Assembly: GCF_002379365.1 (NCBI RefSeq)
Contig: NZ_JQIU01000008.1
Location: 2,495,682-2,528,432 of the forward strand
Source: Brachyspira sp. G79
GTDB lineage: Bacteria; Spirochaetota; Brachyspiria; Brachyspirales; Brachyspiraceae
Reading direction: 5' to 3'
DNA length: 32,751 bases
Shown here: positions 821 to 30,868 of the stretch, in pieces
How positions within the stretch are numbered: position 1 is the first letter of the stretch
Layout: every line of letters starts with the position of its first letter
The notes under the pieces: model-generated
The model's input: the letters and a program-made list of their open reading frames with translations, nothing else
What the model was told of the DNA's origin: nothing
Databases searched by the model: none
Program-made: the position numbers and the translations under genes

Positions 821-1159
821 TTAATTAAATACATGAAATTTTTCTTGAATATAAAATACAAATATACTAAAAATATTACAAAATCTGCTTAAGAGAAGTA
901 TAAAGTTTTTTAGTATGCCTCAAACAATAAACTTTTTTAGATATTGTTGGAGCTTAATTCAATAACAAGTTTCACATATTTATGAAATTAATAATAATTA
1001 TAATTGTCAAGTTATTAATTTAATTTTATATATTTTTTTTAGGTGTTTTAATAATTATGTACAAAAAAGTTTAAATGTCAGAGAATATACGTAGAGCAAT
1101 GGAAAAATAACTATTGGGCAATTATAATAACTATATATGTTTCAAATATTTAAATTTAA
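821..1159. other. Intergenic stretch without a recognisable gene
   Basis: Very AT-rich and broken by stops in every frame. It may hold the decayed 5' end of the MATE remnant and the body of the repeat whose end lies at 1141-1200, but I cannot demonstrate either. Confidence 0.4.
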
Positions 1160-1200
1160 AAAATTAATTTTGACAAATTATAGTTGTTTGGCTATAATAT
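1141..1200 (+). repeat. Copy A of the promoter-bearing intergenic repeat end
   Basis: This copy closely matches the plus-strand copy at 30651-30704. Both contain caaatatttaaa, a ttaaaaaattaatttt-type run, gacaaatt, then ttgttt and tata, in the same order and spacing. The repeat end is the promoter of pnuC. Confidence 0.75.
1170..1198 (+). promoter_or_regulatory. Sigma70-type promoter of pnuC-nadR, carried by repeat copy A
   Basis: TTGACA (1170-1175), 17-bp spacer, TATAAT (1193-1198), which is a full consensus match. Transcription would start near 1205, only about 13 nt before the pnuC ATG, leaving room for the AAAAAGG ribosome site but not for a riboswitch. Confidence 0.85.
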
Positions 1201-1217: not shown

Positions 1218-1910
1218 ATGAAAAATTTTATAAAAAATGAACTTAAAAATTGGAAAACTGTAGAAGTATTATGGATTTTAACAGCAAGTGCTATAATATT
1301 ATCTCTTTCTCTATATTGGAAAGAAAATATTATAGGTATATTGTCATCAATAAGCGGTATATTATGTGTAATTCTAACTGGTAAAGGAAAATTATCTTCA
1401 TATATATTTGGAATGATTAATACTATTCTCTATTCATACATTGCCTTTAATGCCAAATACTATGGTGAGTTTATGCTCAATGTTTTTTATTATATACCTA
1501 TGAATATAGCTGGATTTATACTTTGGAGCAGAAATTTAAATAATGAAAGTAAAGAAGTTATAAAAACAAAATTAAATAATAAGTATAAGATTATAATATT
1601 TGCTTTGTCTTTTATATCTATATTTATTTATGGGCTTATATTAAAAAAATTGGGAGGCTCTCTTCCTTTTGTAGACAGTGCAAGTACAGTATTTGCTATA
1701 ACAGCACAGATACTCTGCATAAAAAGATGCTCTGAACAGTGGATAATGTGGATATTAGTAAATATTTTAAATATATCTATATGGTATATTAATTTCTCAA
1801 GCGGCGGAGATAATATAGCAACTTTGCTTATGTGGAGTGTTTATTTAGTTAATGCTTTATTTATGCTCATAAAATGGTACAAAGAAGCAAACGCTTTAAA
1901 AATAAATTAA
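1218..1910 (+). CDS. pnuC: PnuC-family nicotinamide riboside transporter
   Basis: Inner-membrane facilitator that brings in nicotinamide riboside, which is trapped by phosphorylation inside the cell. The 230-residue product is mostly hydrophobic, with about seven membrane segments after a short polar N-terminus. It carries PnuC-like stretches such as GILCVILTGKGKLSSYIFGM and the NAGWxxW-like region SEQWIMWILVN near residue 175. Length matches the family. The start has AAAAAGG six nt upstream. The next gene is nadR 41 nt downstream, the enzyme that phosphorylates and adenylylates the imported riboside, and this pairing supports the substrate. Transcription comes from the repeat-borne promoter at 1170-1198. 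PnuC relatives for thiamine or riboflavin exist, but the nadR neighbour argues for nicotinamide riboside. Confidence 0.9.
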   Translation: MKNFIKNELKNWKTVEVLWILTASAIILSLSLYWKENIIGILSSISGILCVILTGKGKLSSYIFGMINTILYSYIAFNAKYYGEFMLNVFYYIPMNIAGFILWSRNLNNESKEVIKTKLNNKYKIIIFALSFISIFIYGLILKKLGGSLPFVDSASTVFAITAQILCIKRCSEQWIMWILVNILNISIWYINFSSGGDNIATLLMWSVYLVNALFMLIKWYKEANALKIN

Positions 1911-2962: not shown

Positions 2963-3020
2963 TATATAAATTTTTATTTAATGTATTAAATTATCAATTT
3001 ACAAACTTGAAAATTCTCAG

Positions 3021-3049
3021 TATATACCTAAACAAACATAGTTTGTCAA
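3021..3049 (-). repeat. Copy B of the promoter-bearing repeat end (minus orientation)
   Basis: On the minus strand: TTGACA (3049-3044), 17 bp, TATATA (3026-3021), with the shared core gtttaggtata. It is close to the copies at 1170 and 30676. It points back towards the 3' end of nadR, so any transcript would be antisense to that gene. Confidence 0.7.
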
Positions 3050-3335
3050 AAAATTAACTTTGTAATTTTTGATATTTGCGAAGCACATAGTCGTGCCCCA
3101 CCCAAGTTCTTTTATGACGTCTGTCCTCCTGTTGTATAAAATAACATTATATCCTTGATAAACTCGGATACACTTCGCGAAAGACTGCATTTTTACCCCC
3201 CATTTTAGGTATTTACCATACATTTAATATGTATATTTAAAATATAAAGTTCTAGCAATTGCTTTTTTCGTGAATCATATACGAAGGATAAAAACTTTTG
3301 GAAAAAAGTTGATAATTAGATATAAAGTGCATCAG

Positions 3336-3364
3336 TTGACAAAATAGAATTATTCCAGTATATA
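3336..3364 (+). promoter_or_regulatory. Candidate promoter upstream of the alcohol dehydrogenase
   Basis: TTGACA (3336-3341), 17 bp, TATATA (3359-3364). It would give a leader of about 130 nt before the dehydrogenase, in addition to the MerR-type promoter at 3440-3470. Confidence 0.5.
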
Positions 3365-3439: not shown

Positions 3440-3470
3440 TTGACATTGGAGTGTACTTCAATGTTATAAT
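3440..3470 (+). promoter_or_regulatory. MerR-type promoter and operator of the alcohol dehydrogenase
   Basis: TTGACA (3440-3445) and TATAAT (3465-3470) are separated by 19 bp, the overlong spacing typical of promoters activated by MerR-family regulators. The spacer holds a near-perfect dyad: acattggagt (3443-3452), gt, acttcaatgt (3455-3464), with 9 of 10 positions paired. The half-site core TTGGAGT/ACTTCAA resembles the operators known for the NmlR/AdhR branch, which senses aldehydes and related electrophiles. No merR gene is in the window, so the regulator is unplaced. Confidence 0.72.
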
Positions 3471-3501
3471 ACGCATATATTTTTAAGGAGTGATTAGTAA
3501 T

Positions 3502-4587
3502 ATGTTACTAGATAATAATTTGGAAGAAGCTAATTCTGGAAAAAGAATCAATGCAAAAGGATACGCAGTTCACAGCAAAACAGATACATTCAAACCATTT
3601 GAGTTTTCAAGACATTCTATGGGTGATAATGATATACTTATAGAGATAATGTATGCTGGTATATGTCATAGTGATATACACTCAGCTAGAAGTGAATGGC
3701 ATGAAGGTATATATCCTATGGTACCAGGTCATGAGATTGCTGGTAAAGTTGTTGCTGTAGGTAAGAATGTTACCAAGTTTAAAATAGGTGATTATGCAGG
3801 AGTAGGCTGTATGGTAAACTCATGCGGAGAATGCGAGGCTTGTAAAAAAAGTCATGAACAATTTTGTGAAAGAGGACAGACTGTATTTACTTATGATTGT
3901 AAAGATCATTTTCATAATGATGAGCCTACTTACGGCGGATATTCAAACAATATAGTAGTAAGTGAAAAATTTGCTATTACTGTAGCAAAAGATGCTCCAA
4001 TGGAAAAAGTAGCTCCATTACTATGTGCTGGTATTACAACTTATTCACCTCTAAAATTTTCTGGTGTTAAAAAAGGTGATATAGTAGGAGTTGCTGGTTT
4101 TGGCGGACTTGGCTCTATGGCAGTTAAATATGCTGTTAATATGGGGGCCGAAGTTTATGTATTTGCACGCAATGATAAAAAGAAAAAAGAAGCATTAGAA
4201 ATGGGGGCTAAAGATTTATTTACTTCTACAAAAGATGTTCCAGTACGTTTTGATTTGATAGTATCTACAATACCTACTGGATATGATGTTAATAACTATG
4301 TTGATTTACTTAAATACGGTGGAGAGATGGCTATTGTAGGGCTTCCTCCTTCAGAAATCAAACAAAGTATAGATTTGGCAAGATTAGTATTTTCTGGCGG
4401 TAAAAAAGTTTACGGATCTATGATAGGAGGAATTAAAGAAACTCAGGAAATGCTTGATTTTTCTCTTAAACATAAAATATATCCAGAAACAGAAATAATA
4501 TCTGCAAACCAAATAGATGAAGCATACAATAAACTTACTAGTGGACAGGCAAAATTCAGATATGTAATAGATATGAAAACACTATAA
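3502..4587 (+). CDS. Zinc-dependent NAD(P)H alcohol/aldehyde dehydrogenase, cinnamyl-alcohol-dehydrogenase type
   Basis: Medium-chain dehydrogenase/reductase that probably reduces aldehydes to alcohols with NADPH. Catalytic zinc ligands are visible as C55 (GICHSD), H77-E78 (PGHE) and C175 (LLCAG). The structural zinc site is C108, C111, C114 and C122. The Rossmann motif GFGGLG is at 199-204. Length (361 residues) and arrangement fit the CAD/YahK group. I choose the ATG at 3502 because AAGGAG (3485-3490) lies 11 nt ahead; the in-frame GTG at 3490 overlaps that ribosome site. The promoter at 3440-3470 has MerR-type geometry, so induction by aldehyde stress is plausible. The gene stands alone, with a terminator at 4613-4650. 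The substrate cannot be fixed from sequence. Confidence 0.9.
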   Translation: MLLDNNLEEANSGKRINAKGYAVHSKTDTFKPFEFSRHSMGDNDILIEIMYAGICHSDIHSARSEWHEGIYPMVPGHEIAGKVVAVGKNVTKFKIGDYAGVGCMVNSCGECEACKKSHEQFCERGQTVFTYDCKDHFHNDEPTYGGYSNNIVVSEKFAITVAKDAPMEKVAPLLCAGITTYSPLKFSGVKKGDIVGVAGFGGLGSMAVKYAVNMGAEVYVFARNDKKKKEALEMGAKDLFTSTKDVPVRFDLIVSTIPTGYDVNNYVDLLKYGGEMAIVGLPPSEIKQSIDLARLVFSGGKKVYGSMIGGIKETQEMLDFSLKHKIYPETEIISANQIDEAYNKLTSGQAKFRYVIDMKTL

Positions 4588-30382: not shown

Positions 30383-30411
30383 ATTATACCTAAACGACTA
30401 TAGTTTGTAAA
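30383..30411 (-). promoter_or_regulatory. Repeat copy C: outward promoter facing mraY
   Basis: Minus strand TTTACA (30411-30406), 17 bp, TATAAT (30388-30383). The start would lie near 30376, about 120 nt before the mraY ATG. It is the left inverted end of the repeat element. Confidence 0.65.
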
Positions 30412-30675
30412 TTTTTTTATTCAACTTTTTCACCCTGCACACTACATGAGGATTTCGTCAAAGTTGCTACCAAATGTACACTTCGCGAAAGTACAAGTCT
30501 AAAATAATACTAAATAGTACTAATTATGTTTTAAATTATTAAATTTAGCCTGAAATATAGCCTGCTGTGCTTGCTTCTACACAGAGCGAGGCGTACTTCG
30601 TATAGTGGTGACAGCGTCATAAATGCAGCACGACTGTGAAGACCCACAAATATTTAAAATTAAAAAAATTAATTT

Positions 30676-30704
30676 TTGACAAATTGTAATTGTTTAGGTA
30701 TATA
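30676..30704 (+). promoter_or_regulatory. Repeat copy D: outward promoter facing the 3' end of yjbQ
   Basis: TTGACA (30676-30681), 17 bp, TATATA (30699-30704). A transcript from here would run antisense to yjbQ. Confidence 0.6.
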
Positions 30705-30837
30705 CCAAAATGATTTTATTTTATCAATTTTTGTCTGTTTCTTACTATAAGAGCAATCTTTATGCGGTAATCTGCAGTATTTATTTAAGTTGAAAAATCA
30801 TGTGGTATAGTATTTCGAAACAACTAAAATTTATTTT

Positions 30838-30868
30838 TTGAAAAACTATAGTTGTTCATCTATATAAT
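30838..30868 (+). repeat. Copy E of the promoter-bearing repeat end
   Basis: TTGAAA (30838-30843), 17 bp including aactatagttgtt, then TATATAAT (30861-30868). It shares the actatagttgtt core with other copies. It ends five bases before the yjbQ stop. No left partner was found. Confidence 0.6.

What the first reader, a model, noticed from the sequence alone, without database searches (positions are those of the whole stretch)
1141..1200. A dispersed repeat whose end is a ready-made promoter
Five sites (1170 plus, 3049 minus, 30411 minus, 30676 plus, 30838 plus) share the same layout: TTGACA-like box, 17-bp spacer with an actatagttgttta-like core, then TATAAT/TATATA. The spacing is kept exactly. 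The shared spacer sequence, not only the hexamers, shows common descent. Insertion of such an element would put a neighbour under a strong promoter.
Basis: seen in the sequence. Interest (0 to 1): 0.6.

Follow-up and report, generated by a model that had tools for sequence, protein, structure and literature searches.

The report
Brachyspira mini-transposons with promoter-like ends
The repeated "promoter" is the end of a family of about 300-base mobile DNA elements scattered through Brachyspira genomes; its ends look like ready-made gene switches and have replaced a gene's own switch in at least two places, but most copies sit where they would switch on no gene.

Summary
The five sites are real and far beyond chance: 101 copies in the genome, none in reversed controls. 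They are not five separate repeats. 30411(-) and 30676(+) are the two ends of one element (30387-30700). 30838(+) ends a second element joined to it, 3049(-) ends a third (3025-3360), and 1170(+) is a solitary end.

The family is a MITE: median 286.5 bp, inverted ends TAC...GTA, TA target duplication (two precise empty sites in relatives), preference for TATA. Its likely source is an IS630-type transposon; one decayed copy carries the same ends. Three end types (A, B, C) differ in their spacer but all keep TTGACA-17-TATA, with the -10 box completed by the duplicated TA and flanking DNA.

Promoter use is supported at pnuC (window 1170) and hisH, where an end has taken the place of the native promoter that relatives keep. 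It is not the rule: ends face gene 3' ends more often than starts (150:98), hexamers decay like the rest of the end, and mraY keeps its own promoter. No transcript data were available. Promoter-bearing MITEs are a known kind (Correia elements); I found no report of this family.

The parts
1168..1198 (+). Solitary A-type end: -35 TTGACA 1170-1175, spacer 1176-1192, -10 TATAAT 1193-1198; 19 bases before the pnuC start
1137..1167 (+). Remnant of the AT-rich inner module that usually adjoins A ends (CAAATATTTAAATTTAAAAAATTAATT)
   Evidence: compared by eye with the inner modules
1218..1910 (+). pnuC (NMN transporter), the gene the 1170 end points at
   Evidence: Pfam NMN_transporter E=1.6e-45
2998..3024 (+). 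Solitary B-type end (3 mismatches), sharing one TATATA with element 3025-3360
3025..3360 (.). Element 1 (TAC...GTA), flanked by TA 3023-3024 and 3361-3362; A end on the left reading left, C end on the right reading right
3023..3049 (-).
3336..3362 (+). C end of element 1, pointing towards the adh gene at 3490
30387..30700 (.). Element 2 (TAC...GTA), flanked by TA 30385-30386 and 30701-30702; both ends A-type
30385..30411 (-).
30676..30702 (+).
30703..30862 (.). Element 3, joined to element 2 by one shared TA; left end C-like (weak), right end A-type; right TA 30863-30864
30838..30864 (+).

Best explanation
The sites are the terminal inverted repeats of a genus-wide Brachyspira MITE family: non-autonomous elements of about 170-350 bp, form TAC...GTA, inserted at TA (mostly within TATA) with duplication of that TA, and most likely moved in trans by an IS630-type transposase. 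Shown: copies, ends, pairing, TA flanks, empty sites, and a decayed IS630 copy with the same ends. Inferred: the trans mobilisation. Each end is also a sigma-70-like outward promoter. The element supplies TTGACA, a 17-bp spacer and the first TA of the -10; the duplicated TA and two flanking bases complete it, so insertion at a TATA can build or rebuild a promoter. At pnuC and hisH such an end has taken over the place of the native promoter (shown by comparison; transcription inferred). Most copies behave as mobile DNA that avoids gene starts, decays neutrally, and lies at rearrangement breakpoints.
For: Copies: 101 A, 80 B and 36 C ends in the own genome, 0 in reversed controls. Pairing: 53 facing-in pairs within 1 kb against 3.4 in random placement; 76 paired elements with a wider scan, 256 ends against 1 in the reversed control. 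TA on both sides in 69 of 76, a second TA on at least one side in 75 of 76. Empty sites: one element absent cleanly in G010 and G008 (also absent in G006 and G004), another absent in G008. Copy number 0 to 289 across 26 Brachyspira genomes. Autonomous relative: a 1.06-kb own element with B and A ends holds a decayed DDE_3 (IS630) transposase, E=6.5e-12; a relative of its first part adjoins a perfect B end in G023. Promoter: 90 of 96 exact TTGACAAA...GTATATA pairs keep the 17-bp spacing. pnuC: A end in 3 of 20 genomes; 15 of the other 17 show a different TTGA[CT]T-16-TATAAT-like promoter (by eye). hisH: B end in own genome only; 15 of 18 others show TTGACT-17-TATAAT, homology resuming at the -10.
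Against: No transcript data. Most ends face gene 3' ends: 150 of 248 intergenic ends (p=0.001); intergenic regions holding ends are convergent in 49 of 148 against 11 of 111 without (p=1e-5). Ends 15-150 bp from a start are no better promoters: TATAAT 3 of 48 against 5 of 199; TTGACA 32 of 48 against 116 of 199. In decayed copies the G and C of TTGACA erode like other G/C positions. mraY keeps its native promoter. No intact autonomous copy was found. One 950-bp B/B element holds a different (rve-like) decayed transposase.
Confidence: 0.85

Rival explanations
1. The sites are simply ordinary Brachyspira housekeeping promoters that converge on a consensus, spacer included.
For: TTGACA/TATAAT-like native promoters are visible at pnuC, hisH and mraY in relatives.
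Against: Native promoters there have different spacers. The ends come in facing pairs about 300 bp apart, have empty sites, are absent from 4 of 26 genomes, and mostly face gene 3' ends.
Confidence: 0.03
2. The end sequence is conserved only as a transposase binding site; its promoter likeness is incidental, and no end drives a gene.
For: The TTTGTCAA and TATAC blocks are shared by three end types, as a bipartite binding site would be; hexamers are not better kept near gene starts and decay neutrally in old copies; ends avoid gene starts.
Against: At pnuC and hisH the end stands where relatives have their native promoter, at a usable distance from a ribosome-binding-site-like stretch and start codon; at pnuC the end is kept in 3 genomes although the gene upstream differs in all three.
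Confidence: 0.25
3. The elements serve the host as 3'-end or bidirectional terminator elements rather than promoters.
For: Enrichment in convergent intergenic regions and 41 ends under 20 bp from a stop codon; element 2 folds better than 100 of 100 shuffles (z -3.4).
Against: Element 1 folds hardly better than shuffles (z -1.3); no terminator was tested; avoidance of promoters explains the same placement.
Confidence: 0.12

Closest known systems
Correia elements (CREE) of Neisseria
   Same: MITE with inverted ends, TA (or TATA-like) duplication, over 100 copies, outward sigma-70 promoters; the review PMC9330008 (passages read) notes that TA/TATA targets resemble the -10 and favour fusion promoters, and PMC10969869 (passages read) reports promoter function for uvrB.
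   Different: Different genus; here three end types share the -35/-10 frame, interiors are mosaic, and the likely source is IS630. The Correia end sequence was not aligned here.
IS630-family insertion sequences and their MITEs
   Same: TA target duplication; DDE_3 transposase found inside one copy bounded by the same ends.
   Different: No intact autonomous copy seen; the ends carry complete outward promoter layouts.
IS fusion (hybrid) promoters such as IS1, IS911, IS257
   Same: Outward -35 in the terminal repeat joined to a -10 supplied by the target (PMC9330008, passages read).
   Different: Here the element also brings the first TA of the -10 and the duplicated TA supplies the next, so nearly any TA insertion yields TATA at 17 bp.
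Other promoter-bearing MITEs (MITEAba12, BrickBuilt, QMITE1, SonMITE_1)
   Same: Sigma-70-like promoter sequences within MITEs (named in PMC10969869).
   Different: Sequences and hosts unrelated as far as named there; not compared by alignment.

Membership tests
MITE (miniature inverted-repeat transposable element) | Short element with terminal inverted repeats | tested here: met
   76 paired elements, median 286.5 bp, facing-in ends; random placement gives 3.4 facing pairs against 53 observed for the strict list
MITE (miniature inverted-repeat transposable element) | Target site duplication and precise empty sites | tested here: met
   TA both sides in 69 of 76; precise empty sites for 2 of 7 elements examined, the other 5 uninformative because gene order differs
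MITE (miniature inverted-repeat transposable element) | No transposase of its own | tested here: inconclusive
   The three window elements contain no transposase-like ORF (only a 68-aa ORF overlaps element 1); the interiors of all 76 elements were not scanned for coding
IS630-derived | TA duplication | tested here: met
IS630-derived | Autonomous element with the same ends and an IS630 transposase | tested here: inconclusive
   L072 element with B and A ends holds DDE_3, E=6.5e-12, but the gene is broken; G023 fragment next to a perfect B end; no intact copy found
IS630-derived | Mobilised in trans by that transposase | not testable with these tools
   needs a transposition assay
Correia element | The Correia terminal repeat sequence | not tested
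Sigma-70 promoter | TTGACA and TATAAT-like hexamers about 17 bp apart | tested here: met
   90 of 96 exact-block pairs at 17 bp; TTGACA exact in 148 of 248 intergenic ends, -10 mostly TATATA
Sigma-70 promoter | Mapped transcription start | not testable with these tools
   no Brachyspira transcript data in the tools; one search found no paper with the promoter words searched

The most novel reading that the evidence does not exclude
The ends are tuned to rebuild what they break. Because every end type keeps TTGACA exactly 17 bp from the insertion TA, an insertion into the TATA of a resident -10 box restores a working promoter, and recombination between the ends of scattered copies moves genes around while leaving each with a promoter. 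The family would then be both the cause of the strong gene shuffling in Brachyspira and the reason it is tolerated. hisH (B end abutting the native -10) and pnuC (same end, three different upstream genes in three relatives) fit this.
Probability: 0.25. Interest if true: 0.7.

Novelty: new member of a known kind. Interest (0 to 1): 0.5.

Why it matters
It is a large repeat family that the Brachyspira genome papers I searched do not mention. It is abundant enough (up to 289 A-type ends in one genome) to confuse assembly and promoter annotation, it gives a concrete candidate cause for the extensive rearrangements reported between Brachyspira species, and it supplies two natural cases of promoter replacement that can be tested directly by RNA 5'-end mapping.

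Tried and rejected
Ordinary promoter convergence was rejected because of paired ends and empty sites. Known structured RNA: no Rfam match in the window. Viral origin: no exact match in viral contigs. Selection for promoter quality near starts was looked for and not found. An rve-type transposase as the mover was considered because a 950-bp B/B element holds one; of the 14 relatives fetched from other genomes (L224-L237), 4 had any family end in the fetched stretch (L228, L231, L232, L236), in no case one on each side of the gene, and the intact copies L224, L225 and L226 had none, so it was judged a hitchhiker. A named intact IS630 relative was not found in genome contigs. Some figures carry limits: gene calls are ORFs of 80 aa or more chosen by length; the two ends of one element are not independent; the end scan requires the 17-bp frame; 101 A places were counted but only 100 listed and used.

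Literature: full-text searches. Papers of which I saw only passages found by term: PMC3163572, PMC3532143, PMC2650404, PMC10969869, PMC3035287, PMC2897892, PMC9330008. The main Correia promoter paper (PMC3024310) is not held and was not read.

Full report
WHAT WAS CHECKED. The five sites match one 27-base pattern with 0 to 3 mismatches, where shuffles give none. The window lies in a 3.29-Mb genome at G000:C8:2495682-2528432, and that genome has 101 matches with up to 3 mismatches, 54 on one strand and 47 on the other, against none for the reversed pattern.

ANATOMY. Reading the flanks of the copies showed two further end types with the same frame but other spacers: B (80 matches) and C (36 matches). 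Listed ends pair facing inwards 53 times within 1 kb; random placement gives 3.4 on average, at most 9 in 200 trials (100 of the 101 A places were listed). I fetched stretches around the listed ends (with the loci; one last stretch came only and was not in the scan) and scanned them with position weight matrices: 256 ends (131 A, 87 B, 38 C) against 1 in the reversed control, and 76 paired elements: 39 A/B, 23 A/C, 10 A/A, 4 B/B. Median element length is 286.5 bp. Interiors are modular: the main A-type inner module also adjoins 11 B-called ends, and some C-type modules adjoin A or B ends.

THE WINDOW. Element 1 is 3025-3360 with an A end (the 3049 site) and a C end; a solitary B end abuts it at 2998-3024. 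Element 2 is 30387-30700, and the 30411 and 30676 sites are its two ends. Element 3 is 30703-30862, sharing one TA with element 2; the 30838 site is its right end. The 1170 site is a solitary A end. Of the five sites only 1170 and 30411 point at a gene start (pnuC, mraY); 3049 and 30838 point at gene 3' ends, and 30676 points into element 3.

INSERTION. TA flanks both ends in 69 of 76 elements and another TA adjoins on at least one side in 75 of 76 (the weight matrices include these positions, so this leans upward). Of 22 back-to-back joins, 20 share exactly one TATATA, as expected if elements insert at the TA beside another. Two own elements have empty orthologous sites: C9:49381-49699 in G010 and G008 (and without the element, though diverged, in G006 and G004), and C9:59621-59922 in G008. 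In both, the empty site holds one TATA (one base changed in G008 at the first), and the filled site reads TATA-TAC...GTA-TA, so the element is TAC...GTA and the duplication is TA. Seven elements were examined; the other five gave no answer because gene order differs. Copy number of A ends runs from 0 (4 genomes) to 289 over 26 Brachyspira genomes, reversed control 0 in all 26.

SOURCE. A 1.06-kb own element with a B and an A end (L072) holds a decayed transposase: a 79-aa N-terminal ORF with weak helix-turn-helix matches and a C-terminal fragment matching DDE_3, E=6.5e-12. DDE_3 is the IS630/Tc1 catalytic domain (established knowledge). The N-terminal piece has one relative in the other 25 genomes, in G023, at the edge of a contig and next to a perfect B end. 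No intact copy was found.

PROMOTER READING. Among exact TTGACAAA...GTATATA pairs, 90 of 96 have the 17-bp spacing. Because the element ends in GTA and the duplication is TA, the -10 hexamer is the last TA of the element, the duplicated TA, and two flanking bases. At pnuC the A end is shared by G000, G010 and G008; the other 17 of 20 genomes lack it, and 15 of them show by eye a TTGA[CT]T-16-TATAAT-like promoter in its place. The gene upstream of this end differs in all three carriers: an Hsp20-like ORF in the own window (named from sequence), a DUF305-like lipoprotein in G010 and a MATE-like transporter in G008 (names recalled). At hisH a perfect B end stands before the start; 15 of the 18 other genomes carry TTGACT-17-TATAAT there, and homology between the own sequence and theirs resumes at the TATAAT. 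At mraY the element lies upstream of a native promoter kept in all 22 genomes, and no A end is seen at that place in the other 21 (G023 shows only about 128 bp). These are three loci tested: two replacements, one addition.

RESULTS AGAINST A GENERAL PROMOTER ROLE. Of 256 ends, 150 face a gene 3' end, 98 a start, 8 lie inside an ORF (binomial p=0.001). Intergenic regions with ends are convergent in 49 of 148, those without in 11 of 111 (Fisher p=1e-5). Ends 15-150 bp before a start do not have better hexamers than the rest. In decayed A ends (n=68) the -35 is kept at 0.83, the spacer at 0.85 and the -10 at 0.87 of consensus. Selection on most copies therefore looks absent or against placement at gene starts.

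REARRANGEMENT. In two own stretches (26 kb) compared with G010, 9 of 10 internal ends of collinear blocks lie within 250 bp of an element; 24% of positions do (p=2e-5). With G008 it is 6 of 7. The stretches were chosen for holding many elements; the expectation allows for that, but only two stretches were used. Extensive rearrangement between Brachyspira species is reported (PMC2897892, passages), and mobile elements near rearrangement sites in B. pilosicoli (PMC3532143, passages).

VERDICT. A new family of a known kind: TA-inserting, probably IS630-derived MITEs whose ends carry outward promoter layouts, like Correia elements in function but not shown to be related. The promoter claim is well supported by layout and by two replacements, but not as a general role, and transcription remains untested.

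Noticed in passing
L191 and L192 (G000:C9:47500-62000, G000:C8:1752000-1763500): Ends of collinear gene blocks against the nearest relatives coincide with elements: 9 of 10 within 250 bp for G010, 6 of 7 for G008.
   Followed up: partly
L102:1499-2448 (G000:C8:2303033-2303982): A 950-bp element with two B ends (both with TTGTCA instead of TTGACA) holds a decayed rve-like transposase; intact relatives of that transposase (L224, L225, L226) lack these ends.
   Followed up: partly
window 3440-3470: Before the adh gene (3490): TTGACA, 19-bp spacer, TATAAT with the palindrome CATTGGAGTGTACTTCAATG, the layout of a MerR-type regulated promoter (by eye, class recalled).
   Followed up: no
L092:1689-2930 and 3461-4465: Two paralogous ankyrin-repeat lipoprotein genes each have a B end 38 bp before the start; the B end seems to have been duplicated with the gene.
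   Followed up: no
G012 (for example L226): One Brachyspira genome has 168 matches to the rve-like transposase fragment, a burst of a different insertion sequence.
   Followed up: no
L010, L026 and similar B-end elements: A GC-rich inner module (GTGCGGGAAGGTGC...CGAAGCGTCCCGAACG) directly inside some B ends looks far better conserved than other interiors (clusters of 7 and 3), perhaps a younger subfamily.
   Followed up: no
256 ends of the own genome: 41 ends lie less than 20 bp from the stop codon of the gene they face; whether this exceeds chance was not tested.
   Followed up: no
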